The translations under genes were made by a program, and so were the position numbers. Below, piece after piece: positions 7,268-63,865 of a stretch of DNA of 64,000 nt; the first letter of the stretch is position 1, and every line of letters starts with the position of its first letter. The notes beneath the pieces are model-generated. The model was given only the letters and a program-made list of their open reading frames with translations. It was not told the DNA's origin and did not search any database. Where the stretch lies: positions 1 through 64,000 of the forward strand of contig JAPPDF010000097.1 of assembly GCA_028875575.1 (NCBI GenBank). The letters are read 5' to 3'. This DNA comes from Acidobacteriota bacterium (GTDB lineage Bacteria > Acidobacteriota > Terriglobia > Versatilivoradales > Versatilivoraceae).

Positions 7268-7360
7268 GGTTGCCGTGGATTGAGTGGAGTAAGCCCTGTT
7301 CGAACCCCTCTACCTTATCGGAAATTCACTCCGATCTCAATGGGTCAAGGCTCCCACCGT

Positions 7361-7682
7361 CCTGAAACAAACGCCTGCGCCTGGTGGCTGGAAACCGGTT
7401 CAACGTCACGAAGGGGTAAATGGTTTATTCACATCGATGCACAGGATGCACAGGATTTTTTCTGGAAACGGTGGACCTGCGGTCCTAAAGATCCGCGAAT
7501 CCGCATCGGATCATCGCCCAAATCGGCTTCTGGTGCAGGAAGCTCTCGTCCTGTTAATCCTGTGCATCCTGTGCATCGATGTTCAATAGGTAGGAAACCC
7601 TGCTAGCGGAACATGGCCCTTGTTCCCGACAGGCTATGAAGATTCGTTGTTTCACTCTCGAATGATCTGCCGGCCGGGCAGG
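7361..7682 (+). repeat. Dispersed inverted-repeat element, family A, copy 1
   Basis: The intergenic region 7268-7690 has no gene but holds this element. Its core (7431-7582, 152 bp) has 26-27-base inverted ends reading ACATCGATGCACAGGATGCA and onward. Outer flanks begin at CCTGAAACAAACGC (7361) and end at TTCACTCTCGAATGATCTGC (about 7670). The same outer and inner parts recur at 38346-38713, 56842-57156 and, core only, 16066-16219. No open frame is conserved inside, so it is a non-coding, MITE-like element. It separates two minus-strand operons. Confidence 0.85.
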
Positions 7683-7690
7683 GGTGGTGC

Positions 7691-9937
7691 TTACCTCAGG
7701 AATTCCTTCAAGACGTTCTCCGTTATCCGGGACACGTTGTTGTCATAGTCGTTGTGGGACAGGCTGCCGCACCAGGACATCGACCCCACCGAGAAGACGG
7801 CTCCTCCGCGGGCGGACTCGAAGTAGACCATGTCGGCCCGAATTGGAGGATGGGTGCTGCCGCCGTAGAGCCGTTCGCTCTTGAGTTGGGGAATGTCCTC
7901 GATGACCTGCTGGTAATGGTGGTTGTGGCCGGTGGAGGAGGCCAGCAGCAGGGCGTGAGGAGGGGTCCCCAGATCGAAATCGAGCCGGTCCAGCTCGTCT
8001 CCGGCGGCCCCGCCCATGGCCAGGCCGAAGTCCCCGATGATCTCGTGGTCACCGACACCCTCGAAGATGAAGGCGGCCCGCGGGTCGCCGCTGGCCGGAG
8101 TGCGGGCGTAGCCCGGCGACTCCGTGCTCCAGCCCATGCAGGAAAGGCCCACTCCCACCAGGCTGTTGGGCGCCTTGCCCCGGTGTCGCCACAGCCCTCC
8201 CATCTCCCCGGTAGTGCTGTGGTGGACCTCTCCGGGAGCCGACTCCCAGGTCCGCGACCCGGCGTGGCCCCTCCGGACTTCCATGACCTGGGGTTTTTCC
8301 TCGGAAAGACTGGTGACCCAGTAAAACCCGTTGCCCCCCAGGTACATCAGCCGTCCCCCTTGGCCCAGGTATTGCTCCAGGGCCGACAACATGGAACCGG
8401 TGGTGTACTCGGGGTGGGTGCCCGTGAGCAGGACCCGGTAGTCCCGCAACAGCTCCAGGCCTTGATGGTGCAGATCCTCGTCCGTGATGACATCGCAGTC
8501 GAATCCCTTGGCATTCAGCCAGTCCACCAGGTAGAGGTCGCTGGCCAGATGGCGGGGCCCTCCCAGGCGCCATTTGAGGTACCTGGGACGCAGGTTGGTA
8601 ATGGGGCGCAATCGGGAGGCGTAGATGAAACCGCTTCCGTCTCGGTGATGGTCGTAGAGGGAGGCCGACAGTTCCGGGTGGTCCACCAGGTAGAGGTCTC
8701 TCGGGTCCCGATTGAGCGGCCGTGGACTCGCCATCAAGGCCGCCAGGCCGGGGCTGTAGTCCATCCTCTCGTTGGCGTAAGCCAGATAGGTCAGGGTGGG
8801 GACCAACAGGGCCGCCCGGGCCCGCTCTGCTCCCTCGCCGGGCCTGACGAAGAAGGGGATGTGATCCTCCCCATCGCCGCCTCTGAGCCTGGCCGCATAG
8901 ATTCCGCTCCTGAGCGTGGGGGGAACCTCCAGGGTGAAGTCGGTCCGCCAGGCCGCGTCCTCCAGGTCGTCGCCGTGGAAATGGATGGCGCCGTATTCCT
9001 CGGGGGACCGCTTGAAGTCCGTCTCCCGACCGCTCCAGTTGTGCCCGGTGACGGCCCGGGCCGGCATGTTGACGGCAGTGGCGTGCAGCTTGTTCGGCCC
9101 CAGGTCCCTGGCCCGGGAGGTGTGCATCTCCCTGGAAAAATCCCAGGCGGCGACCAGGTCCTGCTGACCCACCTCGAGGGGGAGGGCTCCACGTCTCAAC
9201 TGCTCCAGCTCCTCGCTCCCGAGAGCCCGTCTGAAGAGACAAGGTCGTTCGAGCTTGCCGTCATAGAGTTCTTTTCCCAGGATGCGCCCGCCGAGGCGGC
9301 AAGCGCGTCCGGACGCCATCAGCAGGGGGGCGTCGCTGTCGAGCTCCGCCTGGCGGGGAAGCATGTCCGTGGCGCTGCAGGAAGTGGTGTCGGGGCCGGG
9401 TCCGAAACACTCCTGCTGGCACAGTCGGACCCTTCGGTTGGGGACGTCGATGGTGGCGGCCACGAAATACCAGTGACGTCCTCGCAGGGCCCGTCCGGTC
9501 GAGAGGCTGTAGCTGTCGCCGTCCGGGCGGCCCACCCGCAGCTCCAGGTCTCCTCCGGGCCCCAATCCCAGCCCGTACCCGGCGGGATCCGACGACCACC
9601 ACTTCGAGATCAGTCCTTGCCGTTCCCCTCGGTCGGTTCCCGTCGGGAAGATCCATGCTTGCAGGGTGAGCGATTTCAGTCCCCTCAGCGCCGGCCGGTC
9701 GGGGACCGTCAGCCAGGATCCGCAGTGGATCTCCTGCCGGCGGCCGGGGTAGGCGCCGTCGATCGGGGTAGGGACGACTTCCTCCTTGTAGCCCGGCCCG
9801 GCGGTATTCTCGTCTCCATGGATGAGTCGCACGATGGCGGCCTCATATTGGGGCAGGTCCGTGCTGACCTTGAAAGCCAGCTTTTCTCCAGGGGATACGC
9901 TGAACTTGTCGCTGTAGCCGATGAGCTCTGTCGCCAT
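7691..9937 (-). CDS. N,N-dimethylformamidase large-subunit-like protein with LamG-type domain
   Basis: A 748-residue protein resembling the large (beta) subunit of N,N-dimethylformamidase, which hydrolyses the amide bond of dimethylformamide using mononuclear iron. An N-terminal domain is followed by a laminin-G/concanavalin-like insert (about 75-265, with SLTLQAWIFP and HWYFVAATID). The characteristic C-terminal domain follows (from about 330: LTYLAYANER, YLKWRLGG, LTGTHPEYTT, YLGGNGFYW). It has no signal peptide. The small subunit that accompanies this enzyme in known degraders is not nearby, so the true substrate may be another amide or the protein may act alone. It follows the FG-GAP gene by 27 bases and is probably cotranscribed with it. 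Confidence 0.8.
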   Translation of the reverse strand: MATELIGYSDKFSVSPGEKLAFKVSTDLPQYEAAIVRLIHGDENTAGPGYKEEVVPTPIDGAYPGRRQEIHCGSWLTVPDRPALRGLKSLTLQAWIFPTGTDRGERQGLISKWWSSDPAGYGLGLGPGGDLELRVGRPDGDSYSLSTGRALRGRHWYFVAATIDVPNRRVRLCQQECFGPGPDTTSCSATDMLPRQAELDSDAPLLMASGRACRLGGRILGKELYDGKLERPCLFRRALGSEELEQLRRGALPLEVGQQDLVAAWDFSREMHTSRARDLGPNKLHATAVNMPARAVTGHNWSGRETDFKRSPEEYGAIHFHGDDLEDAAWRTDFTLEVPPTLRSGIYAARLRGGDGEDHIPFFVRPGEGAERARAALLVPTLTYLAYANERMDYSPGLAALMASPRPLNRDPRDLYLVDHPELSASLYDHHRDGSGFIYASRLRPITNLRPRYLKWRLGGPRHLASDLYLVDWLNAKGFDCDVITDEDLHHQGLELLRDYRVLLTGTHPEYTTGSMLSALEQYLGQGGRLMYLGGNGFYWVTSLSEEKPQVMEVRRGHAGSRTWESAPGEVHHSTTGEMGGLWRHRGKAPNSLVGVGLSCMGWSTESPGYARTPASGDPRAAFIFEGVGDHEIIGDFGLAMGGAAGDELDRLDFDLGTPPHALLLASSTGHNHHYQQVIEDIPQLKSERLYGGSTHPPIRADMVYFESARGGAVFSVGSMSWCGSLSHNDYDNNVSRITENVLKEFLR

Positions 9938-9964: not shown

Positions 9965-12799
9965 TCATTCGCCCTGTCGCCGATACCCGACCGATACCGA
10001 TCGCAGCACCGGGCTGTTGGCGGAGTCCGGGCTGATCAGGGTGGCCTTGTACTGGATCCAGCGGGCCTTTGGGGGGAGGCCATCGATCCCGGCCGGCGAG
10101 GTTCGGTAGAAGCTGTCCGGACCCCGGGGACCCTGCCAGGGGGCGGCGTCCAATCCCTGGCGCGTATCGGCCGCACGGAGCTGAAATTCCAGTCCGGTCC
10201 GCCAGGGGGTGTCGCCCTTCCATGCCAGCGTGGAGAAAACGGCTCCGGGACCGGCGTCGAAAGCGGGGGAGGTGAAGTCGTAGCGGTCGCCGCGGTCATA
10301 GATGTGGCCGATGTCGATGACGCTGAGGTAGTGGGGCCCCAATACCGGCAGATGGCTGCGCCGGTCGGGCGAGAATCCGGCGGGGCCGCCCCAGTAGAGA
10401 AAGGCCTGGTTGCGGTGGTTTCCGTCCCTGGAATGGCAGGAAAAGAGAATGTCCTTGTAGCCGTTGCGGTCGAAGTCGGCTGTCAGGACCCCCGAGGCCG
10501 AGTTGGTCGGCAGCCGGGTGAAGCGGTCGGGCTGGAACCCCCGGGCGCTGTTCCAGTAGATGGTGGAGGGATGGCTGCGGGTGTGGCCGGCGTGATAGCT
10601 GGTGAGCACCAGGTCCAGGCGACCGTCCCCGTCCAGATCGGCCACGGCCACGTCGGCGTTCCCGATGGAAGGCAGAATCTGTCGGGAGGCCGGAGAATAG
10701 CCGTCGGGGCCGCCCCAGTAGATGAAGGTGTCGCCCTGCGGAGAGCCCCCGAAGGATTGAGGCTTGTCGGGATCGGGACCGGGATCGAACAGGTTGGGTA
10801 CGATGATGTCCAGCCAGCCGTTTCCATCGAGGTCGGCCACTTCGACGGTGGCGGCGACCCCGGTAGGCAAGCGGGTCTTGCGTGCGTTGTCGAAGCCCTG
10901 CGGATCGTTCCAGTAGATAAAGATCTCGCGGTTGGTGGTGCTGGTAAAGATGAGGTCCGGCCAGCCGTTGCGATCCAGGTCGGCCAGGTGGTGGTGGCGC
11001 AACCCTCCCACCCGGAAGACAAAGCGGTTGTCCAGGGAAAAGTCCCCGGGGCCTCCCCAGAGAAGGCTGGTCTGCTCATGTCCCGGCTGCCACTCGCTCA
11101 GCGCCAGGTCCAGGTAGCCGTCTCGATTGAAGTCGGCGAACCGGCCCGACATCGCCGGATCGGAGTCCACCTTGGAAGTGCGGCTGGGAGAATAGGGCTC
11201 CCGTCCGCCCCAGTAAATGGCGGGGGGCTGTTCCGGGAGAAACAGATCCGGGAATCCGTCCCGGTTCAGGTCGGCCGCCGCGTAGGAACCGGCGCCGCCG
11301 CTGCCGAGCTCCAGCCGTGCTTCTTGGCTGTAGCGGCCCTCGGGACCTCCCCAGTAGAGGAGGGAGGGCACCCGGCGGCTGCCGTCCGACTTGTTTGCGA
11401 AAACCAGGTCCCGGGCGCCGTCGGAGTCCAGGTCGCCGATGGCGATTCCGCTGGCGTTCAAGGTGGGAAGGGTCCGCTTGCGGTTCCGGCTGAATCCCTG
11501 GTCGCTGCCCCAGTAGATGAGTGAGCCGCCATCCCGGGCCAGGCGGTCCGCTCGCTGAGCAAAGATCAGGTCCGGGAAGCCGTCTCGATTGATATCCTCC
11601 ACTTCCACGGCGGCGGCTTCCGAGGTGGGGAGGGCCAACCGCTTGTTCGGTTGGAACCCTTCGGCCGATGCCCAATAGACGTAGGCCGCCCCTCCGGCCC
11701 CGTTGGCGAAGACCAGGTCGGGCCTGCGGTCCGCGTTGAGGTCGGCCGCTTGCACGTCCCTAGCGGCCACCGTCGGCAACCGGCTGGGCTCTTTGGCCTC
11801 ATAGCCCCCCGGACCGCCCCAGTAGACATACGAATCCACAGCCACGGTATCGACGATGTTGTAGATATCCATCTCCCGGGCCCGAAGCCTGAAGCCGTTG
11901 GCCAGAACCACTTCCGGCCATCCGTCGCCGTTGAGGTCGCCGGCGGCCACTGCCGAGCTCCGCTCACCGGACAGCCTGGTGACCGGACGCCTGGAAAAAT
12001 CCCCTTTTCCGTCCCCCCAGTAAATCCAGGCGCCCGACTCTTCATCGCGGTTTCCTTCGATGGCGAAGACCAGGTCGAGGGAGCCGTCCCGGTCCAGATC
12101 GGCGATCTCCAGGTCTCGGGCCAGCACCGTTTTCAGGCTGGTTCGGCGCTCCGGGCTGTACCCGCTCTCCGCGCCCCAGTAGATGAATGACTGGTTGAAT
12201 CTGTCCACCGGCACGTGGTAGCTCAAGCCGCTGTTGGCGAAGACCAGTTCCTTCCATCCGTCGCCGTTGAGGTCGGCGGCGGCCGCTGCCTCGGCGCCCC
12301 GGGTCGGCAGCAGCGTGCGGCGTCCGGGCTCGAAGCCGTCCCGGCCGCCCCAGTAGACGTAGGAGTCCAGGTCGCTGCGGGTGCCGTTGAAGCGATTGAC
12401 CAGTACCAGGTCGGGATAACTGTCCTGGTTCAGATCGGCAATGGTTACCGCTTTGCCCCCGTCGCTGGGCAGCCGGGTCCTGCCGGCGGGGTCGAATTCC
12501 GAACCTCCCCAATAGATGAACAGATCCACTTTCTCATTGTGATCGTGGCTGCTCGGAAAAAAAAGGTCCAGTTGGCCGTCATGGTTGAGGTCCCAGAGGT
12601 TGATGAGCCGGACCGTGCCGTCGGCCCCCACGTAGGTGTTGGCTCCGCCGTCGGCAAGGGTGCCGTCCACGAAATCCAGGAAGGAAGAGGAGGTCCATTC
12701 CCGGTTGGACCCGGATTCTCCCGGAGCGACGACCCAGAGGACGGCCAGCAGGATCGGGATGGCAAACCGCACGGCGCTCGCCTTCGACAAAAGTGACAT
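9965..12799 (-). CDS. Secreted FG-GAP/VCBS repeat protein (14 repeats)
   Basis: A 944-residue protein with a signal peptide (residues 1-30) followed by about fourteen repeats of roughly 60-75 residues. Each has an acidic calcium-loop motif of the form D-(L/F)-(N/D)-x-D/N-G-x-x-D-(L/I)-(V/I/L)-F. Each is followed by a SYVYWGG or FIYWGG element. These are FG-GAP/VCBS blades, enough for two beta-propellers. It is probably extracellular and binds calcium or surfaces; an enzymatic role is not evident. The ATG at 12799 is preceded by a near-perfect AAGGAGG, so strong translation is likely. It is the first gene of a two-gene unit with the dimethylformamidase-like gene. Confidence 0.9.
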   Translation of the reverse strand: MSLLSKASAVRFAIPILLAVLWVVAPGESGSNREWTSSSFLDFVDGTLADGGANTYVGADGTVRLINLWDLNHDGQLDLFFPSSHDHNEKVDLFIYWGGSEFDPAGRTRLPSDGGKAVTIADLNQDSYPDLVLVNRFNGTRSDLDSYVYWGGRDGFEPGRRTLLPTRGAEAAAAADLNGDGWKELVFANSGLSYHVPVDRFNQSFIYWGAESGYSPERRTSLKTVLARDLEIADLDRDGSLDLVFAIEGNRDEESGAWIYWGDGKGDFSRRPVTRLSGERSSAVAAGDLNGDGWPEVVLANGFRLRAREMDIYNIVDTVAVDSYVYWGGPGGYEAKEPSRLPTVAARDVQAADLNADRRPDLVFANGAGGAAYVYWASAEGFQPNKRLALPTSEAAAVEVEDINRDGFPDLIFAQRADRLARDGGSLIYWGSDQGFSRNRKRTLPTLNASGIAIGDLDSDGARDLVFANKSDGSRRVPSLLYWGGPEGRYSQEARLELGSGGAGSYAAADLNRDGFPDLFLPEQPPAIYWGGREPYSPSRTSKVDSDPAMSGRFADFNRDGYLDLALSEWQPGHEQTSLLWGGPGDFSLDNRFVFRVGGLRHHHLADLDRNGWPDLIFTSTTNREIFIYWNDPQGFDNARKTRLPTGVAATVEVADLDGNGWLDIIVPNLFDPGPDPDKPQSFGGSPQGDTFIYWGGPDGYSPASRQILPSIGNADVAVADLDGDGRLDLVLTSYHAGHTRSHPSTIYWNSARGFQPDRFTRLPTNSASGVLTADFDRNGYKDILFSCHSRDGNHRNQAFLYWGGPAGFSPDRRSHLPVLGPHYLSVIDIGHIYDRGDRYDFTSPAFDAGPGAVFSTLAWKGDTPWRTGLEFQLRAADTRQGLDAAPWQGPRGPDSFYRTSPAGIDGLPPKARWIQYKATLISPDSANSPVLRSVSVGYRRQGE

Positions 12800-13117: not shown

Positions 13118-14398
13118 ATGGACGACTCCTCGAGAGTGCTGATCTCCCGCCGGACGCTCTGGCCCTTTGTCCTGCTCACCAGTTGCTTTGCCTGGTGGGG
13201 CCTGGCCAACAACATGACCGATACGCTGCTGGCGGCTTTCAAGCGGATCATGAGCCTGTCGGACTTCCAGACCTCCTGGATACAGATCGCCTTCTACGGC
13301 TCCTACTTCTGCCTGGCCCTGCCGGCGGCGCTGTTGGTCAAGAAGTGGTCCTACAAGGCCGGGGTGCTCCTGGGACTGGGGCTGTTCGTGTGCGGTGCGC
13401 TGCTCTTCTATCCTGCCAGCATGACCATGAACTACGCCCATTTCCTGCTGGCCCTCTACATCCTGGCGGGCGGACTGTCCATCCTGGAGACCGCCGCCAA
13501 TCCCTACATCATCGCCATGGGACCGGAAGAGACCGGGACCCGGCGATTGAATTTCGCCCAGTCCTTCAATCCCATCGGTTCCATCCTGGGGGTTTTTCTC
13601 AGCAAGTGGTTCATTCTTTCCGAGCTGAACCGGGCCGGCGCCGAGGATCGGGCCGCCATGGACCGGGAGCAGCTTGACCGGATTCAGGCCGAGGAACTGG
13701 CCGCCGTCATGGAGCCCTACGTGGCTGTTGCCCTGTTCCTGACCCTGGTATGGATCCTCATCGCCGTCACCCGCTGGCCCAGGGCTGCCGACACCGGCGG
13801 CGATATGGAGCTGGCGGCTACGGTGGGAAGGCTGATCCGTGTGTCCCGCTACCGTTGGGGGGTGGTCGCCCAGTTCTTCTACGTGGGCGCCCAGATCGGG
13901 GTGTGGTCCTTCACCATTCGCTACGTGATGCAGGAGCTGGGGCTGAACGAGGACCAGGCGGCCAGCTACTACCTGGCGGCGCTGATCCTCTTCACCGTCT
14001 CTCGATTCATCAACACCTGGCTGATGCGCTTCCTGAGTCCGGGAGCCTTGCTATGCCTGATGTCCCTGATTGCCATGGGCTGCACCCTGGGGGTGATACT
14101 GGCGGGAGGACCGGTCGGGGTCTATTCCCTGGTGGGGATATCGGGGTGCATGTCGCTGATGTTTCCCACCATTTTCGGCCTGTCGGTGCAGGGGCTCGGC
14201 CGCGACACCAAGATCGGTGGAGCCGGGCTGATCATGGCCATCCTGGGCGGAGCCGTCCTGACCGCCCTGCAGGGCCAGGTCTCCGACATGGCCGGCAGCA
14301 TCCGGATTGCCTATGCGGTGCCGCTGGCCTGCTTCCTGGTGACGGCCTGGTTCGGTGGGGTGGTCTGCCCGAGGGAGTTGCCGTCCACAAGACGGTAA
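13118..14398 (+). CDS. FucP-like sugar:proton symporter (MFS)
   Basis: A 426-residue inner-membrane transporter with about twelve hydrophobic segments. It belongs to the fucose:H+ symporter (FucP) branch of the major facilitator superfamily. Signature segments are FAWWGLANNMTDTL in helix 1, SWIQIAFYGSYF in helix 2 and ETAANPYI...RLNFAQSFNPIG in the helix 4-5 region. The ATG at 13118 has GGAGG seven bases upstream; the frame stays open further upstream without family similarity. The likely substrate is a hexose or deoxyhexose, imported with a proton. It stands alone, convergent with the next MFS gene. Confidence 0.9.
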   Translation: MDDSSRVLISRRTLWPFVLLTSCFAWWGLANNMTDTLLAAFKRIMSLSDFQTSWIQIAFYGSYFCLALPAALLVKKWSYKAGVLLGLGLFVCGALLFYPASMTMNYAHFLLALYILAGGLSILETAANPYIIAMGPEETGTRRLNFAQSFNPIGSILGVFLSKWFILSELNRAGAEDRAAMDREQLDRIQAEELAAVMEPYVAVALFLTLVWILIAVTRWPRAADTGGDMELAATVGRLIRVSRYRWGVVAQFFYVGAQIGVWSFTIRYVMQELGLNEDQAASYYLAALILFTVSRFINTWLMRFLSPGALLCLMSLIAMGCTLGVILAGGPVGVYSLVGISGCMSLMFPTIFGLSVQGLGRDTKIGGAGLIMAILGGAVLTALQGQVSDMAGSIRIAYAVPLACFLVTAWFGGVVCPRELPSTRR

Positions 14399-14403
14399 GC
14401 GGG

Positions 14404-14560
14404 AAAAGAGATATCCACGAAGGGACACGAAGGACTACGAAGGGCCACCAAGAGGTTGGAGGTGGATTGAGAGGGGTGCCGCGTCCCCTATTCACCGCAT
14501 CAATGAGTTTTTCTTCGTGAGTCTTCTTGGTTTTCGTGTCCCTTCGCGGATATCTCTTTT
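14404..14560. repeat. Long inverted repeat between convergent genes, family B
   Basis: Arms at 14404-14430 (AAAAGAGATATCCACGAAGG...) and 14534-14560 are near-perfect reverse complements around a 103-base centre. The right arm ends in TTTTT on the plus strand and the left arm begins with a run of A, so the structure could act as a bidirectional terminator for both convergent MFS genes. Half-copies of the arm occur near 38001, 50476, 62227 and 63866. Confidence 0.8.
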
Positions 14561-15841: not shown

Positions 15842-16065
15842 TCTTGGCTCTCCAGGAGGAAAACGATCGAGGAAGGGTTGATTCTCCAGAACCCGGCAGG
15901 CGGAGTCAACCGGTTAGCCGAGCCACCGTCCTGTCCGGGGCGGTTGCTCTTCTTGATTGGAACTTATTTATGAGTGGTCCAAAAGTGACATTTACGAAGG
16001 GGCAGGAAGAACCACGAATAAACACGAATTGACACCAATTGTCCAATCGTTTGGTTCCATTTTGA

Positions 16066-16219
16066 ACATCGATGCACAGGATGAATAGGACGTGAGGTTC
16101 CGGCACCGCAAGTCGGCGCGGCGATGATCCGTTGCGGGCCTGCAGATGCCCAGGACTACAGGATTCAGGATTCCCGAATAAATTCCCAAAAAAATCCTGT
16201 GCATCCTGTGCATCGATGT
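16066..16219 (-). repeat. Dispersed inverted-repeat element, family A, diverged core copy
   Basis: The gene-free stretch 15842-16419 contains this 154-bp core. The inverted ends match the other family A copies (ATCGATGCACAGGAT at the left, ATCCTGTGCATCGATGTGAA at the right). The centre keeps only patches such as 'gcgatgatccg'. The outer flanks of the full element are missing. Upstream, about 15994-16030, are CACGAA-type words of family B. A promoter for the phosphatase gene should lie between 16220 and 16419. Confidence 0.8.
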
Positions 16220-16419
16220 GAATAACTCATTCAAATGATTCCCGGGATTCCAGGACGCCAGACTCCCAAGAGCCATCCTGTATGACCTGGCCAACCATGT
16301 GAATTATCCCTGTAAATCACGAGACGGGCGAGGCACTTCCATCCGTGAAGACTATTTCCCAATCCAGGTATAATTCGGGATGGCAGGTTCAGCCGGGTTT
16401 CGTCCGAAAGGGGTTCATC

Positions 16420-23367: not shown

Positions 23368-23524
23368 CCCGGGGTTCTCATTCAGAGTTCACGGACAAGT
23401 CCCGCCCCCTCCCTGCCGGGCGCTTCATCGGAGGAAGGAACTGCCGATGGTTGTTGAAGATGAACCACGAATGGACTCAAAGACCGATGGACCTCCCTTG
23501 CTGCGACGACGTCACGGGATGAAG

Positions 23525-23738
23525 CCCACCCGGGAGCGCGGGCGTCTCGCCCGCAAGAGTCTTGGCACAGCCTCGGCCATCTCCTCCACCCGGTTCGGCC
23601 GGCAAGGGCGCCACGACTCTGCCTCGGCCGAGCCCATGCCGTTCCCGCCGGCAGGCTGTCTGGGTGCGGCATCGCAGGGAAACTGAGCGGCACCGAACGG
23701 GAGTGCATGCGGGCGGGACGCCCACGCTCCCGGGTGGG
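23525..23738. repeat. Dispersed inverted repeat, family C
   Basis: Arms 23525-23554 (CCCACCCGGGAGCGCGGGCG...) and 23709-23738 are imperfect reverse complements, enclosing about 155 bases. Just outside the left arm, 23478-23524 continues a block that recurs inverted at 38131-38189. The whole stretch 23368-23791 has no gene. Frames crossing it give short Gly-Ala-Pro-Arg-rich peptides that are products of the repeat, not proteins. Confidence 0.75.
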
Positions 23739-23791
23739 CCTGCTCGGCCGAAAAATCTCGAGGTCCACCTCACAAGCCCCAGGGATCGAAC

Positions 23792-36213: not shown

Positions 36214-36327
36214 CCATGTCGAATGCGCCAGACTGCAACTCCTAGCTCCCCTGTCGTCGGTCATGGCCTTGAGGCCGAGTAAAGTATTTCCAACAATTCA
36301 ACAACCTCCCCAAACTTTCTCTCCAGG

Positions 36328-37803
36328 CTAAGCCAGGATCTCGTGGAGGATTCGTCCGTGGACGTCGGTGAGGCGGAAGTCGCGGCCCGAGTAGCGGTAG
36401 GTGAGCCGTTCGTGGTCCAGGCCCATCAGGTGCAGGATGGTGGCGTGCAGGTCGTGGACATGCACCCGGTCGTGGACGGCCCGCATGCCGAAATCGTCGG
36501 TGGCGCCGTAGGTCATCCCTGCCTTGACGCCTCCTCCGGCCATCCACACGGTGAAGCCGTAGTGGTTGTGGTCCCGCCCCGGCCTCTTGGTGCTGGGATC
36601 GGCGGTGGGGGTGCGGCCGAACTCGCCGGCCCAGAGCACCAGGGTCTCCTCCAGCAGACCCCGGGCCTTCAGGTCCTTGAGCAGGGCCGCGATGGCCTGG
36701 TCGCAGTCCTTGGCCTTGGGTCGATGCCACAGGATGTCGCCATGGTCGTCCCAGGCGATGTCGGGGGCAAAGGCCAGTTGCACCACCCGGACCCCCCGTT
36801 CCGAGAGCCGGCGGGCCAGCAGGCATCCCTCGGCGAAGCCTCCGAAGGGGCGTCCGCCGATGGTGCTGTAGGTGGGTTCATCGGTGATCCCGTAGAGATC
36901 GCGGGTGGCTTGAGTCTCCCGGCTGAGGTCGAAGGCCTCGGGGGCGGCCGTCTGCATTCGATAGGCCAGCTCGAAGGACTGAATCCTGGCCTCCAGGGCC
37001 TGGTCCCGTTCCACCTGCTCCAGGTTCAAGCGGTTCATGCGGGCCAGCAGGTCGACCTGCCGCTGCTGCTCGGCGCGCGACAGGTAGGGGTTGCGCAGGT
37101 CGGGGACGACCTTGCTGGGGTCCAGGTTCTCGGTGTCGACAAAGGTGCCCGAGTAGATGCCCGGCAGGAAGCTGCTGTTCCAGGCGGGCTCTCCGGGGCG
37201 GTGCCGGCCCTTGTGACAGATGGAAATAAAGGCGGGCAGGTTCTGGTTTTCCGTGCCCAGGCCGTATCCCAGCCAGGCCCCAATGCTGGGCCGGTTGGGT
37301 TGAATCGCCCCGGTGGTCATCATCAAGAGTCCGGCCACGTGCTCGGGAAGGTCGGTATGCATGGAGTGGATGATGCAGAGGTCGTCGATGCTCTGGGCCA
37401 CGTGGGGAAAGAGTTCGCTGACCCAGCGGCCGGACTGGCCATGGCGTTGGAACTCGAAGGGCGACTTCATCAAGCCCTCGGTCTTGCGCAGGGTCTTGAT
37501 GTCCACGGCTGCCGGGCGTTGGCCGTGGTATTTCTCCAGCAGGGGCTTGTGGTCGAAGGTGTCCACGTGAGAGACGCCGCCGTTCATCAGCAGGTGAATC
37601 ACCCGCTTGGCCCGGGGTGCGAAGTGAGGGGCCTTGGGAAGCAGGGAGCTGCCGAGCCGCGCTTCCGAGGCCTGCAGGGTGTCGGAGCCGAGCCATCCGG
37701 CCTGGTCCATTACGGCTGCCAGTCCCAGGGAACCGATTCCCGTGCCGACCCGGCTCAGTAGTTCCCGGCGGGACAACGACTGTTGAAGGAGTGGGTGTCT
37801 CAT
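36328..37803 (-). CDS. DUF1501 protein, duplicate copy without partner
   Basis: A 491-residue DUF1501 protein with a Tat-like N-terminus (SRRELLSRVGTGIGSLGL). It has HLLMNGGVSHVDTFDHKP, WDDHGD and AGEFGRTPTADPSTKRPGRD. It is nearly identical in DNA to 38822-40288 over the whole coding region. The match stops at the N-terminus (this copy begins MRHPLLQQS, the other MDFRTP) and at the stop codon. A block near 37140-37330 carries most of the differences. No ribosome binding site is visible before the ATG at 37803 and no DUF1549/1553 partner is adjacent. It is likely a recent duplicate whose expression is uncertain. Confidence 0.9.
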   Translation of the reverse strand: MRHPLLQQSLSRRELLSRVGTGIGSLGLAAVMDQAGWLGSDTLQASEARLGSSLLPKAPHFAPRAKRVIHLLMNGGVSHVDTFDHKPLLEKYHGQRPAAVDIKTLRKTEGLMKSPFEFQRHGQSGRWVSELFPHVAQSIDDLCIIHSMHTDLPEHVAGLLMMTTGAIQPNRPSIGAWLGYGLGTENQNLPAFISICHKGRHRPGEPAWNSSFLPGIYSGTFVDTENLDPSKVVPDLRNPYLSRAEQQRQVDLLARMNRLNLEQVERDQALEARIQSFELAYRMQTAAPEAFDLSRETQATRDLYGITDEPTYSTIGGRPFGGFAEGCLLARRLSERGVRVVQLAFAPDIAWDDHGDILWHRPKAKDCDQAIAALLKDLKARGLLEETLVLWAGEFGRTPTADPSTKRPGRDHNHYGFTVWMAGGGVKAGMTYGATDDFGMRAVHDRVHVHDLHATILHLMGLDHERLTYRYSGRDFRLTDVHGRILHEILA

Positions 37804-38821
37804 CTGTGAGGGTAAGTGGGTGTTGTTGACTTGCCGGAGTAACCTTGTTCCGGCGTCTAGCCCGCATTCGCTACCGACCCTGTCACACTAAGGGTATCAA
37901 GCACTTTCGGCCATATCCAAGGCAATTCGGAATCGTCCCGCCCGGCATTTCCAGCCATTCAACAGTGTCCCCGTTTCCCTGACCTGAGACAAACGAAAAA
38001 AGAGTGGTCCACGAAGCGACACGAAGAACGACGAAGGGCCACCAAGCGTGACGGCTCTGCCGCATCGGCAGGGCTGCGGGCCGGAAAGCCGGCGCGTGCC
38101 CCCTTGAATAGCAAGAGTGATGGGAGGAGGCGCTCCCGGGTGGGCTTCGTCCCCTGACGTCATCGCGGCCAAGGAGGTCCATCGGTCTTTGTGATTAGCG
38201 GCCCCCCGCCCGGACGTGCGGATCATACGAGAGTGAAACCGGTTTGTTCCAGTTGCTGAACGTGTCGATCAATGAACCATCCACTAACCGCTGACCACTT
38301 TTCACTTTTCACCTGGTTGCGCCGCCGTCCCATACGACGAGGCAGCTCATAGGGGGCGAAACAGGGGCGTTCCAGACAAGTACCACCCCTGCCCTGCCGG
38401 GCAGATCATACGAGAGTGAAACAACGAATCTTCATAGCCTTTCGGGGAAAAGGGTCCTGTTCCGTTAGCATGGTTTTCCACCTAATTGAACATCGATGCA
38501 CAGGATGCACAGGATTAACGGGACAAGAGCTTCCAGCACGAGAGGCCAGCTCAGGCGATGATCCGGTGCGGTTTTGCGGATTCCCGGCATGAAGAGCTAG
38601 CCGTTTCCTGAAAAAAATCCTGTATATCCTGTGCATCGATGTGAATAAAAAATTTGCCCATGCTCGACTTTGAACCGGTTTCCAGCCACTAGGCGCCAGC
38701 GTTTGTTTCAGGTAAGTCGTGGTTCGTCTTCGACAAGCGTCGTCAGTTTCTTCCTCGAATGATTTGCCCGGCAGGGCGGAGGCGGGACTTGTCCGTGAAT
38801 CCCGTGATGGTTGTGCCCAGG
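37804..38821. other. Repeat-filled intergenic region between duplicated DUF1501 genes
   Basis: There is no gene in this kilobase. From left to right it holds a family B arm (about 38001-38045), an inverted copy of the family C flank (38131-38189) and a GTGTCGATCAA-type family F fragment (about 38258-38312). A full family A element (38346-38713) follows. This density of different repeats between two copies of one gene suggests a recombination hot spot. Confidence 0.75.
38346..38713 (-). repeat. Dispersed inverted-repeat element, family A, copy 2
   Basis: This is the longest copy. Its 153-bp core (38490-38642) has the ATCGATGCACAGGATGCACA-type inverted ends. The flank towards 38713 ends in GCGTTTGTTTCAGGT. 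The flank towards 38346 contains CGAGAGTGAAACAACGAATC and GGCAGATCATACGAG. Read in reverse it is identical, as far as I can compare by eye, to 56842-57071 over about 230 bases. No frame is conserved. Confidence 0.88.
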
Positions 38822-40288
38822 CTAGGCCAGGATCTCGTGGAGGATCCTTCCGTGGACGTCGGTGAGGCGGAAGTCGCGGCCGGAGTAGCGGTAGGTGAGC
38901 CGTTCGTGGTCCAGGCCCATCAGGTGCAGGATGGTGGCGTGCAGGTCGTGGACATGCACCCGGTCGTGGACGGCCCGCATGCCGAAATCGTCGGTGGCGC
39001 CGTAGGTCATCCCTGCCTTGACGCCTCCTCCGGCCATCCACACGGTGAAGCCGTAGTGGTTGTGGTCCCGCCCCGGCCTCTTGGTGCTGGGATCGGCGGT
39101 GGGGGTGCGGCCGAACTCGCCGGCCCAGAGCACCAGGGTCTCCTCCAGCAGACCCCGGGCCTTCAGGTCCTTGAGCAGGGCCGCGATGGCCTGGTCGCAG
39201 TCCTTGGCCTTGGGTCGATGCCACAGGATGTCGCCATGGTCGTCCCAGGCGATGTCGGGGGCAAAGGCCAGTTGCACCACCCGGACCCCCCGTTCCGAGA
39301 GCCGGCGGGCCAGCAGGCATCCCTCGGCGAAGCCTCCGAAGGGGCGTCCGCCGATGGTGCTGTAGGTGGGTTCATCGGTGATCCCGTAGAGATCGCGGGT
39401 GGCTTGAGTCTCCCGGCTGAGGTCGAAGGCCTCGGGGGCGGCCGTCTGCATTCGATAGGCCAGCTCGAAGGACTGAATCCTGGCCTCCAGGGCCTGGTCC
39501 CGTTCCACCTGCTCCAGGTTCAAGCGGTTCATGCGGGCCAGCAGGTCGACCTGCCGCTGCTGCTCGGCACGGGACAGGTAGGGGTTGCGCAGGTCGGGGA
39601 CGACCTTGCTGGGGTCCAGGTTCCCGGTGTCCACGAAGGTGCCCGAGTAGATGCCCGGCAGGAAGCTGCTGTTCCAGCCAGGCTCACCGGGACGGTGGCG
39701 TCCCTTGTGACACAGGGAGATGAAGGAGGGCAGGTTCTGGTTTTCCGTGCCCAAACCGTATCCCAGCCAGGCGCCCAGGCTGGGCCGGTTGGGTTGAACC
39801 GCCCCCGTGTTCATCATCAAGAGCCCGGCCACGTGCTCGGGAAGGTCGGTATGCATGGAGTGGATGATGCAGAGGTCGTCGATGCTCTGGGCCACGTGGG
39901 GAAAGAGTTCGCTGACCCAGCGGCCGGACTGGCCATGGCGTTGGAACTCGAAGGGCGACTTCATCAAGCCCTCGGTCTTGCGCAGGGTCTTGATGTCCAC
40001 GGCTGCCGGGCGTTGGCCGTGGTATTTCTCCAGCAGGGGCTTGTGGTCGAAGGTGTCCACGTGAGAGACGCCGCCGTTCATCAGCAGGTGAATCACCCGC
40101 TTGGCCCGGGGTGCGAAGTGAGGGGCCTTGGGAAGCAGGGAGCTGCCGAGCCGCGCTTCCGAGGCCTGCAGGGTGTCGGAGCCGAGCCATCCGGCCTGGT
40201 CCATTACGGCTGCCAGTCCCAGGGAACCGATTCCCGTGCCGACCCGGCTCAGCAGTTCCCGGCGGGACAACGGTGTACGAAAGTCCAT
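38822..40288 (-). CDS. DUF1501 domain protein (partner of 41453-43828)
   Basis: A 488-residue DUF1501 protein starting MDFRTPLSRRELL, with a GGAGAAG ribosome binding site before the ATG at 40288. The Tat-like signal and hallmark motifs match the duplicate at 36328-37803. It is the more likely original, because upstream lie an RNase D gene and a DUF1549/1553 gene on the same strand. Its first 40 bases overlap the end of the RNase D frame, implying coupling. The function is unknown as for the family; the superfamily fold suggests a hydrolase acting on a sulfate- or phosphate-like group. Confidence 0.93.
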   Translation of the reverse strand: MDFRTPLSRRELLSRVGTGIGSLGLAAVMDQAGWLGSDTLQASEARLGSSLLPKAPHFAPRAKRVIHLLMNGGVSHVDTFDHKPLLEKYHGQRPAAVDIKTLRKTEGLMKSPFEFQRHGQSGRWVSELFPHVAQSIDDLCIIHSMHTDLPEHVAGLLMMNTGAVQPNRPSLGAWLGYGLGTENQNLPSFISLCHKGRHRPGEPGWNSSFLPGIYSGTFVDTGNLDPSKVVPDLRNPYLSRAEQQRQVDLLARMNRLNLEQVERDQALEARIQSFELAYRMQTAAPEAFDLSRETQATRDLYGITDEPTYSTIGGRPFGGFAEGCLLARRLSERGVRVVQLAFAPDIAWDDHGDILWHRPKAKDCDQAIAALLKDLKARGLLEETLVLWAGEFGRTPTADPSTKRPGRDHNHYGFTVWMAGGGVKAGMTYGATDDFGMRAVHDRVHVHDLHATILHLMGLDHERLTYRYSGRDFRLTDVHGRILHEILA

Positions 40289-41430
40289 AGTGCTTCTCCA
40301 AGTTCCTGACGCTGCCATCGGCGAACATCCTTGCTTTTCATCTCGTCGTCGAGCCCATCCGTCCAGGTGGTGGAGAGACGCGCCAGGCTGGCGGTTGGCC
40401 AGAGCAGAAATGAAGAGAGCCTGAGGCGACTCGCTTCTCCGGCCCGCCACTCTTTCAGGAGACGCAGCCGGGTTCGATTCTCCCTGAACCCCGCCCTGCG
40501 CTTCCGCGGGCGCTGGACGGGGCCCGTCCTGATCCCTTCTTGGATGGCTTGGCGCACTCCCAGGGATAAACGGCCGTCTCCGTATCTTCCTAGGCCCTTG
40601 ACACGGGCAGGATCGGAGTAGGGGCTGGCCGCCAGCTCCACCATGGCCGCGTCGGAAAAGATTCTGAACGGCGGCCGATCACACCGCAGCGCTTCTGTCT
40701 CGCGAAAGGCGTGGAGCGATCGCAGGACCGCCAATCCCCGTCCGTCGAGGTCTCGACTGCCCTTGACCGAGAGGAATTTCCACTCGGCGTCCGGCGCCAC
40801 ATAGCGAATGCCCTCAAGCCGCTGGCATTCCTCCCTTACCCACTCCGTTCTGCCAAGCCTGTCCAACTCCTCGTACAGGAGTGTCGCAAGCCGGTCGAGG
40901 TGAAGCACATCCAGGGCCGCGTACCGAAGCAGGGCTCCCGTAAGCGGCCTGCGAGACCAGTCGGCCCGCTGCAACTTCTTGTTCTTGTCGATCTCGATGC
41001 CCAGATATTCCGTGAGGACCGCTGCCAGGCCGAGCTTTTCGGATCCCACGAAGGCGGCGGCCATACTGGTGTCGAACAGGCCGCTTACGGTGAATTTCCA
41101 ATCACGATCCAGGAGCCGCAGGTCGGAGTTGGCAGAGTGGAAAACCTTCTCGACGGCGGCGTTGGCCAGGAACTCCCCGAGAGGTGTGATGTCCTCGATC
41201 GAGAGCGGATCGATGATGTATACGGCGTCAAGGGTTGCAAGCTGTACCAGGCACACCCGTTCGGGGTAGCGGTGGAAGTTGTTGGACTCCAGATCCACCG
41301 CAACGCGTGCCTGCCGTTGCACCGATTCGACGACTTCCTCCAGCTGCGCCTGGGTCGTTATTCTCTTGCCCAGGCCCCCGCCGGTGTGCTCCAACGCCGC
41401 AACGCTTGCGGGGTTGGCTATCCCATCCAT
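40249..41430 (-). CDS. rnd: Ribonuclease D-like 3'-5' exonuclease
   Basis: A 393-residue DEDDy exonuclease. The catalytic residues are visible: D46-x-E48 in VAVDLESN, the aspartate in VFHSANSDLRLLDRD, and the YAALDVLHL motif with its Tyr and Asp. An HRDC-like domain follows (about 225-300). The C-terminal stretch (LKEWRAGEASRLRL...) is family-like up to the end, so the overlap with the DUF1501 start is real. RNase D trims tRNA precursors in the cytoplasm. Its position between an exported DUF1549/1553 protein (22 bases or more upstream) and its DUF1501 partner is unusual. Confidence 0.9.
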   Translation of the reverse strand: MDGIANPASVAALEHTGGGLGKRITTQAQLEEVVESVQRQARVAVDLESNNFHRYPERVCLVQLATLDAVYIIDPLSIEDITPLGEFLANAAVEKVFHSANSDLRLLDRDWKFTVSGLFDTSMAAAFVGSEKLGLAAVLTEYLGIEIDKNKKLQRADWSRRPLTGALLRYAALDVLHLDRLATLLYEELDRLGRTEWVREECQRLEGIRYVAPDAEWKFLSVKGSRDLDGRGLAVLRSLHAFRETEALRCDRPPFRIFSDAAMVELAASPYSDPARVKGLGRYGDGRLSLGVRQAIQEGIRTGPVQRPRKRRAGFRENRTRLRLLKEWRAGEASRLRLSSFLLWPTASLARLSTTWTDGLDDEMKSKDVRRWQRQELGEALWTFVHRCPAGNC

Positions 41431-50832: not shown

Positions 50833-50955
50833 CTGATTCCTTACTTAAGTTAAACATGCCTTTACATATAAGAAAACCAAGGTGACGTGATGCATTGCAC
50901 GCCGGGTAAGCCGGTCCCCTTTCATGCCGTGCGGATCAATCGGGTGGAGCCGGTT

Positions 50956-51100
50956 GCAAAATTCGGCGGCGGAATCTTTGTCGGGAATGGCCACAAAAGG
51001 CACAAAAACACAAAGAGAGCGGAACGATATCAAAATTCGTTTTGTGCTTTTTGTGGTGAACCTGAATTTCTCACCAAGTCGCAGCCGATATTGCAATGGG
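50956..51100. repeat. Dispersed inverted repeat, family D, copy 1
   Basis: The segment starts GCAAAATTCGG and contains a strong AT-rich dyad CCACAAAAGGCACAAAA (50991-51007) / TTTTGTGCTTTTTGTGG (51040-51056). A second copy with the same order lies at 63651-63770. The bases 51103-51122 just after it (GTTTGTTTCAGGTAA) equal the outer end of family A. The stretch 50833-51127 has no gene. Confidence 0.75.
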
Positions 51101-51127
51101 CTCTAGTTTGTTTCAGGTAAATGCAGG

Positions 51128-56696: not shown

Positions 56697-56841
56697 GCCG
56701 GGACCAACCTGCGGGCCCCCGGACGCCGCGATTAATTCGGACTGAAACAGGGGTGTTTCGGACCAGTGGAGAGTGGAGAGTGAAGAGTTGTCAGCCGTGG
56801 GTTTCGGGGACGAGCTGGCAGATTATGAACTGTCTGCGCTT

Positions 56842-57156
56842 ACCTGAAACAAACGCTGGCGCCTAGTGGCTGGAAACCGGTTCAAAGTCGAGCATGGGCA
56901 AATTTTTTATTCACATCGATGCACAGGATATACAGGATTTTTTTCAGGAAACGGCTAGCTCTTCATGCCGGGAATCCGCAAAACCGCACCGGATCATCGC
57001 CTGAGCTGGCCTCTCGTGCTGGAAGCTCTTGTCCCGTTAATCCTGTGCATCCTGTGCATCGATGTTCAATAGGGAGAACAACGTGCAAACGGAAAAGGGT
57101 CCTTGTTCCTGATTTGACATGAAGGTTCGATGTTCCACTCTCGTATGCTCCGCCCC
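56842..57156 (+). repeat. Dispersed inverted-repeat element, family A, copy 3
   Basis: The gene-free stretch 56697-57329 holds this element, opposite in orientation to copy 2. Its core is 56913-57065 with ATCGATGCACAGGAT-type inverted ends. Over 56842-57071 it reads the same as the reverse of copy 2. Past 57072 the two share only patches (AAAAGGGTCC, CACTCTCGTATG). GTGGAGAGT repeats at 56764-56785 and CTCTCCA repeats at 57234-57263 form an outer inverted pair around it. Confidence 0.88.
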
Positions 57157-57186
57157 GTCGTCGGGGCTGGGGCGGCACGTATTTGA

Positions 57187-57265
57187 AGGAATGCGCCGAG
57201 ACCGACAAGATGCTTTGCGTGTCGATCAAACAGCTCTCCACTCTCCACTCTCCACTCTCCACTAC
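57187..57265. repeat. Family F repeat with (CTCTCCA)n
   Basis: GAATGCGCCGAGACCGACAA is followed by a GTGTCGATCAA segment and at least four tandem CTCTCCA units (57234-57263). The same phrase order occurs at 43972-44100. The tandem units are the reverse complement of GGAGAGT units at 56764-56785. Confidence 0.6.
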
Positions 57266-63316: not shown

Positions 63317-63650
63317 GAAGTGCCCCTGGTCATTGAAAAAGGCCGCGGCTGCCTTTCAATAATAGCAATGACAGGGAGTGATTATCTCTGGAAGAATGGA
63401 GGGGGCTGCCCGAAAGGGGTTGGCGCGCCCTCTGCCCTGACCTGTGGATCATTCGAGCAAAGAATGGCAGATGGTTAGCCAAGTTGAACCCCGAATGAAC
63501 ACGAATATACACGAATGCGTATGGACTTCGTTCGACGGCAAGCGACACCGAATTGCTTCTGCAAACTCTTTACTTTGGTATCACTTCGTGTCCTTCGTGG
63601 ATAACCCTCTCAATATCGGTTGTCACCCCCAAACAGCAAGCGGGCCTATT

Positions 63651-63770
63651 GCAAAATTCGGCAGCGGGACGTTTGCCGGGAATGGCCACAAAAGGCACAA
63701 AAACACAATTTGTGCCTTTTGTGCTTTTTGGGGTTAGACAGCGTTTTTTACCGAGTCGCACCCGATGTTG
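63651..63770. repeat. Dispersed inverted repeat, family D, copy 2
   Basis: Starts GCAAAATTCGGCAGCGGGAC and contains CCACAAAAGGCACAAA paired with TTTTGTGCTTTTTGGGG, as at 50956-51100. The surrounding 63317-63979 has no gene. It also contains CACGAATATACACGAATGCG at about 63494 and CTTCGTGTCCTTCGTGG at about 63585, both family B-like. Confidence 0.75.
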
Positions 63771-63865
63771 AAAAAGGCAGGACCGCAGGTTTGCCGGCAA
63801 GATGAACTGCCCCGCTGCGAATTGTGCAAAAAGCTCAACGCATCACTCCGTATATTGGTGTTCAT

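What the first reader, a model, noticed from the sequence alone, without database searches (positions are those of the whole stretch)
56842..57071. Two copies of a non-coding element identical over about 230 bases, 18 kb apart and inverted
Comparing by eye, 56842-57071 reads the same as the reverse complement of the 38490-38713 region and its flanks. Beyond 57072 the copies drop to patches. The element has 153-bp inverted-repeat cores, no coding capacity and further diverged copies in the same window. Identity in neutral DNA means recent mobility or gene conversion. It could be a MITE moved in trans by a transposase or TnpA-REP-type enzyme elsewhere.
Basis: seen in the sequence. Interest (0 to 1): 0.72.

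Follow-up and report, generated by a model that had tools for sequence, protein, structure and literature searches.

The report
CT-targeted modular mobile element family
The two identical stretches are part of a ~340-base non-coding mobile element, one of hundreds of related modular elements that jump into 'CT' sites between genes in one genus of (probably sponge-associated) Acidobacteriota; they behave like known REP-type bacterial repeats, but the enzyme that moves them was not found.

Summary
In detail: 56839-57070 equals the reverse complement of 38485-38716 over 232 bases, and three more near-identical copies lie elsewhere in the same 4.49-Mb genome among about 40 diverged ones. The 232 bp and its 153-bp inverted-repeat core are not the mobile unit. 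Comparison with six species of the genus gives precise empty sites for three of the five copies and for two related elements. These define the unit as CT|TRYYTGAAAC...[long imperfect hairpin, ~300 nt]...GTTTCACTCTCGWATGATC[small hairpin]~9 nt|CT, without terminal inverted repeats. Target, left junction and right junction carry CT in all five events. The same ends carry other cargos (e.g. CACGAAG arms), and elements chain head to tail at shared CTs. The family is genus-wide (329 3'-end sites in the one complete genome) and absent from 54 genomes outside the genus. CT junctions without terminal repeats resemble REP sequences cut at C|T by TnpA-REP (HUH/Y1) enzymes. But the GTAG guide is missing, the Y1 genes of this genome sit beside other repeat families, and three genomes have no Y1 gene. 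The five copies share their interior but differ at their 3' ends, so recombination also contributed. Verdict: a new variant of REP/BIME-like non-autonomous elements; enzyme unknown.

The parts
56839..57177 (+). X-type element, copy 1 (contains the finding); 5' CT at 56839-56840; 3' end followed by CG (57178-57179) where most copies have CT
   Evidence: Empty orthologous site in G005; alignment with other copies
56839..57070 (+). 232-bp block identical to the reverse complement of 38485-38716 and to three copies on other contigs
56845..56852 (+). TGAAACAA: 5' strand of the outer stem of the long hairpin
56913..56939 (+). left inverted arm made of tandem 9-nt units (…GCACAGGAT ATACAGGAT…); unit number varies between copies
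57039..57065 (-). right arm, inverted copy of the left arm
57131..57137 (+). degenerate TGTTCCA (consensus TTGTTTCA): 3' strand of the outer stem
   Evidence: sequence
57152..57167 (+). small 3' hairpin GCCCC-GTCGTC-GGGGC about 10 nt before the element's 3' end
   Evidence: sequence; hairpin and CT offset statistics over the family
38379..38716 (-). X-type element, copy 2 (inverted), CT at both ends; followed head to tail by a short module sharing the CT at 38379-38380
7357..7691 (+). X-type element, copy 3, 78% to copy 1; 3' CT at 7690-7691; the same site in G001 holds a CACGAAG-type cargo instead
16045..16240 (.). degenerate X core, arms only
14402..14554 (.). Z-type (CACGAAG 9-nt unit) inverted-repeat cargo, absent in G005
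56765..57263 (+). older Y-type element (AGTGGAGAGT arms 56765-56798 and 57230-57263) into which copy 1 is inserted; present without copy 1 in G005

Best explanation
The identical stretches belong to a young subfamily of a genus-wide superfamily of non-autonomous, modular mobile elements. SHOWN: the unit lies between two CT dinucleotides and inserts at a CT in the target; it has no terminal inverted repeats; its 5' end is CT|TRYYTGAAACAA; its 3' end is a small hairpin followed after about 9 nt by CT; different long-palindrome cargos share these ends; elements abut head to tail at shared CTs. INFERRED: the unit moves in trans as single-stranded DNA, cut at C|T on both sides by a HUH-type enzyme in the manner of TnpA-REP/IS200-IS605, with the hairpins as recognition structures. 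Recombination between copies then exchanges 3' ends and cargos, which explains identical interiors with unlike ends. Likelihood of each step: mobility at CT sites about 0.93; HUH chemistry about 0.5; supply of the enzyme by one of the detected Y1 genes about 0.15.
For: Five independent empty/filled comparisons have CT at target, 5' junction and 3' junction. Three are identical-set copies: C80:16994, absent in G005, G003, G002 and G001; C26:31549, absent in six relatives with clean junctions in G005 and G002; C84:64275, with G005 as the empty form. Two carry related cargos: L171 vs L219 and L265 vs L177. Over 130 3' ends, CT sits 9-10 nt after the hairpin in 53 of 71 with a clear stem, and conservation stops at CT: 0.06-0.07 bit just after it, at most 0.35 bit in the residue further on, about 0.02 bit beyond; on the 5' side conservation starts at CT. 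The whole element folds as one long hairpin plus a small 3' hairpin, z = -4.1. G001 has its own burst with the same 5' end, mostly 95-98% alike. C|T is the cleavage site of TnpA-REP enzymes (PMC8266576). No IS110-type (PF02371) gene in the genome.
Against: No GTAG precedes the 3' hairpin (GATC stands there). Both Y1 genes of the window's genome lie among other palindromic repeat families. Three genomes with the family, including G004 (100% complete), have no Y1 match. No replication-strand bias was visible in G001: 34 vs 22 forward sites, about 31:25 expected from replichore sizes. The 5' terminal 62 nt fold no better than shuffles, z = +2.25. Covariation support for the hairpin is slight: 2 of 60 pairs. 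A CT-specific recombinase of another kind gives the same junctions.
Confidence: 0.5

Rival explanations
1. The elements move as double-stranded DNA by a recombinase with a 2-bp CT crossover core (small serine recombinase of IS607 type, or a bridge-RNA IS110 recombinase acting in trans). CT at both ends is then the core.
For: CT at both junctions, no terminal inverted repeats, head-to-tail chains at shared CTs, no strand bias. IS110-type recombination also uses a CT core (from memory; PMC11208160 and PMC11208158 were listed but not read).
Against: No PF02371 match in the genome. Targets share little beyond CT, whereas a bridge RNA would impose a longer target.
Confidence: 0.2
2. The perfect identity is mainly gene conversion among resident copies; insertion is old and rare.
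For: Among four identical-set copies 21 of 24 variable columns lie in the 3' third, and the identical block ends at about 232 in copy 1. The tandem DUF1501 genes beside copy 2 are 97.9% alike within this genome but about 93% to either G001 copy, so conversion acts in this genome.
Against: Three of the five copies are insertions absent from several relatives. The orthologous copy at 7357 (98% to G005) is not homogenised with the other copies of its genome.
Confidence: 0.2
3. A classical MITE whose terminal inverted repeats are the ACAGGAT arms, moved by a DDE transposase.
For: 27-bp inverted arms; some copies align only over the arm-to-arm core.
Against: Empty sites place the ends about 70-110 bp outside the arms, at CT. 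The arms are tandem 9-nt units of variable number and are replaced by other arms in elements with the same ends.
Confidence: 0.05
4. Assembly artefact.
For: Draft genome of 101 contigs.
Against: Five copies with distinct flanks, both flanks syntenic in relatives for four of them; the same superfamily with its own burst in a single-contig genome.
Confidence: 0.02

Closest known systems
REP / BIME / REPIN sequences moved by TnpA-REP (RAYT)
   Same: Non-coding, high copy, extragenic, subterminal hairpin, cleavage/junction at CT, mosaics of modules, no long target duplication, mobile in trans
   Different: No GTAG or CGTC tag beside the hairpin; unit is about 140-675 bp, not 20-150; one asymmetric 3' hairpin plus a long palindromic cargo; no cognate RAYT found
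IS200/IS605-derived non-autonomous elements
   Same: No terminal inverted repeats, no target duplication longer than CT, hairpin near the 3' end, insertion beside a short fixed target
   Different: IS200-type TnpA genes in the genus lie among other repeats; no guide tetranucleotide recognised; a 5' hairpin only exists if the whole cargo folds
BOX elements and other modular bacterial repeats
   Same: Composite modules with shared ends and variable inner units (comparison from memory)
   Different: Different sequence, ends and target; not compared by computation here
MITEs of DDE insertion sequences
   Same: Small, non-coding, multi-copy, contain inverted repeats
   Different: Inverted repeats are internal, the two ends are unlike each other, no constant target duplication beyond CT

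Membership tests
REP/TnpA-REP system | Junctions/cleavage at C|T | tested here: met
   Five insertions and end profiles
REP/TnpA-REP system | GTAG (or CGTC) tetranucleotide at the foot of the palindrome | tested here: not met
   ATGATC precedes the 3' hairpin in the family; no GTAG at its foot in the instances printed
REP/TnpA-REP system | Cognate RAYT gene flanked by the repeats | tested here: not met
   Y1 genes of G000, G001, G003 and G006 that were scanned lack the X-element ends (one CACGAAG-type 5' end near the RAYT-like gene of G000), and those inspected have other palindromic repeats
REP/TnpA-REP system | A Y1 (PF01797) protein present in genomes that hold the repeats | tested here: inconclusive
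   Present in 4 of 7 genus genomes, absent in 3, one of them 100% complete
IS200/IS605 non-autonomous element | Hairpins at both ends | tested here: inconclusive
   3' hairpin yes (z = -2.1); 5' end alone does not fold; the long hairpin closes with TGAAACAA/TTGTTTCA
IS200/IS605 non-autonomous element | Strand bias relative to replication | tested here: not met
   34 vs 22 forward sites in the two replichores of G001; old and young copies mixed, list of reverse sites incomplete
MITE (DDE) | Terminal inverted repeats at the ends | tested here: not met
   Ends are CT|TRYYTGAAAC and hairpin-GGGGCGGCA|CT
MITE (DDE) | Target-site duplication of fixed length | tested here: inconclusive
   At most the dinucleotide CT, which is also the target preference
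IS110-type mobilisation | IS110 recombinase in the genome | tested here: not met
   No PF02371 match in G000; the control rang in E. coli and three other genomes
IS607/serine recombinase mobilisation | Small serine recombinase with matching ends | not tested

The most novel reading that the evidence does not exclude
A class of non-autonomous elements with a fixed two-part frame (CT-TRYY-stem ... stem-linker-hairpin-CT) into which different long palindromes of 9-nt units are swapped, moved by a recombinase that is neither a recognisable Y1, IS110 nor DDE enzyme and that prefers the CT at the end of resident copies, so that the elements grow as chains.
Probability: 0.25. Interest if true: 0.7.

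Novelty: new variant of a known kind. Interest (0 to 1): 0.5.

Why it matters
How REP-type repeats spread is still largely inferred from in vitro cleavage. Here empty/filled site pairs between closely related species show insertion at CT in nature, define both ends of the mobile unit, and show that large palindromic cargo can ride inside it. That makes the mobilising enzyme searchable by its ends, and shows that much intergenic DNA of this genus is built of such modules.

Tried and rejected
Rfam: no family in the window. Plasmid and phage collections: no match. Papers holding the arm sequences or the genus name Versatilivorator: none in the held library; no paper on such repeats in sponge Acidobacteria surfaced. 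Element ends beside Y1 genes of the genus: none apart from one CACGAAG-type 5' end near the RAYT-like gene. Co-variation of the arms: weak only (one position, Fisher p = 0.047; unit numbers not positively correlated), and 2 of 60 pairs in the consensus fold, so a selected RNA hairpin is not claimed. Replication-strand bias in G001: not seen; the tool's list leaves out reverse-strand sites, so only forward sites and a 400-kb sample were used. Folding the 5' end or a short module alone: no better than shuffles.

Full report
OBSERVATION. The identity is exact from 56839 to 57070 (232 bp) against the reverse complement of 38485-38716. The alignment goes on, at about 90% overall, to about 57185. 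A third copy lies at 7357-7691 and a worn core at 16045-16240. The genome (G000, 4.49 Mb, 101 contigs; the window is contig 97) holds 44 main places at E <= 0.001 (105 candidates, 40 scored). Five of them are identical over 227-230 bp of the 230-bp query: contig 97 twice, 84, 26 and 80.

ORGANISM AND SPREAD. That they are sponge-associated is inferred from isolate names and general knowledge. All 7 genomes of the genus have the element, and 0 of 54 other genomes of the family and class do at E <= 1e-5. Plasmid and phage collections have none. G001 has 329 sites of the 3'-end motif, against 0 for the reversed control pattern.

EMPTY SITES. Relatives are syntenic at 86-98%. The copy at C80:16994 is absent in G005, G003, G002 and G001. 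In element orientation the junctions are GGGAAAAG|CT|TGTCTGGAAC ... GGGAGGGAGG|CT|CTTCATG, and the empty form in G005 is AAAAG|CT|ATTC. The copy at C26:31549 reads CATCC|CT|TACCTGAAAC ... GGAAGCGG|CT|AACC, empty form CATCC|CT|AACC. The copy at C84:64275 reads GATCC|CT|TACCTG ... GGCCGG|CT|AATCAC, empty form in G005 GATCA|CT|CATCAC. Two insertions with other cargos, L171 vs L219 and L265 vs L177, again show CT at target and both junctions. With CT at about 6% of dinucleotides, five targets out of five is about 1e-6 by chance (own estimate). Inserted units are about 165, 400, 477, 487 and 675 bp; those with X plus a second module are the 400-, 477- and 675-bp ones. Copy 1 (56839) sits inside an older element with AGTGGAGAGT arms that G005 has without it; its 3' junction reads CG, so it supports insertion but not CT on that side. 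Other indels found in the same screen were less clean, and some lack CT; they include degenerate or unrelated segments.

ENDS OVER THE FAMILY. Among 130 distinct 3' ends (motif TTTCACYCTCGWATGATCYG), 71 have a clear hairpin, and CT lies 9-10 nt after it in 53 of these. Conservation falls from up to 1.3 bits before CT to 0.06-0.07 just after it; positions 4-7 keep a residue of up to 0.35 bit, and beyond that it is about 0.02. Among 86 places with TGAAACAAA, conservation starts at C(-6)T(-5) and is about 0.1 bit before that. Of 115 aligned 3' ends 56 are followed at once by another module start, so elements form head-to-tail chains sharing a CT. The frame also carries CACGAAG-type cargo, and short modules without cargo exist (CTTGTCTGAAACACCCCTGTTTC...). 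At the site of copy 3, G001 has a CACGAAG cargo in the same place. The arms are tandem 9-nt units, mostly two or three.

STRUCTURE. Copy 2 folds as one long hairpin closed by TGAAACAA/TTGTTTCA, followed by the small 3' hairpin; z = -4.1, 0 of 100 shuffles as good. The consensus of 20 copies keeps these pairs, mostly by invariance: only 2 of 60 pairs show two-sided changes. The structure is conserved as sequence; selection for folding is not shown.

AGE AND RECOMBINATION. Four identical-set copies differ at 24 columns, 21 of them in the last third and only 3 before column 235 (binomial 4e-8); copy 1 departs from about column 232. A purely clonal burst would not do this, so exchange of 3' ends between copies (conversion or template switching) is inferred. 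Conversion is plausible here: the tandem DUF1501 genes beside copy 2 are 97.9% alike within this genome against about 93% to either G001 copy. G001 has its own burst, mostly 95-98% alike. G004 shows only about 91-92% pairs in the sample.

ENZYME. G000 has two Y1 genes: an IS200-type TnpA (NCBIfam NF033573, over cut-off) and a RAYT-like gene (NF047646, 76.5 bits, just under the cut-off of 80). The surroundings of both are rich in other palindromic repeats, and the scan for X ends around the Y1 genes of G000, G001, G003 and G006 found one CACGAAG-type 5' end near the RAYT-like gene and none elsewhere. G002, G004 and G005 have no Y1 match although G004 is 100% complete. No IS110-type gene in G000. 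TnpA-REP enzymes cut single-stranded REP at C|T next to the hairpin and depend on GTAG (PMC8266576). The elements share the CT but lack GTAG. There is no visible replication-strand bias. So 'works like a TnpA-REP-mobilised repeat' is the best available model, while 'is a REP of a known RAYT' fails two tests.

VERDICT. Real, mobile and genus-wide; a new variant of the REP/BIME kind with large palindromic cargo and a CT-to-CT unit; enzyme open.

Noticed in passing
window 36323-37803 and 38817-40297: Tandem DUF1501 genes on either side of copy 2 are 97.9% identical within this genome but about 93% to the G001 copies (G001's own pair 95.2%): concerted evolution of a tandem gene pair.
   Followed up: partly
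window 14397-14555, 38007, 50486, 62241; 50949-51101 and 63644-63778; 56765-57263: Three further repeat families with inverted arms (CACGAAG 9-nt units, CACAAAAG, and AGTGGAG 7-nt units); some share the CTTRYYTGAAAC start of the X elements.
   Followed up: partly
L031 and L032 (contig 99 of the window's genome): An IS200-type TnpA surrounded by GCTGCGAAGCTGCGG-type palindromes and a RAYT-like gene surrounded by GGAGCGCGGGCGTC-type palindromes, suggesting each enzyme has its own repeat family.
   Followed up: no
L075:1107-1473 (contig 80 of the window's genome): A 367-bp stretch with palindromes like those around the IS200-type TnpA, absent at the orthologous place in G001.
   Followed up: no
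window 23524-23739: 32-bp arms GCCCACCCGGGAGCGCGGGCGTCTCGCCCGCA in inverted orientation 152 bp apart: another REP-like family.
   Followed up: no
window 10346-12452: Direct repeats inside a long ORF, likely a repeat-rich protein.
   Followed up: no
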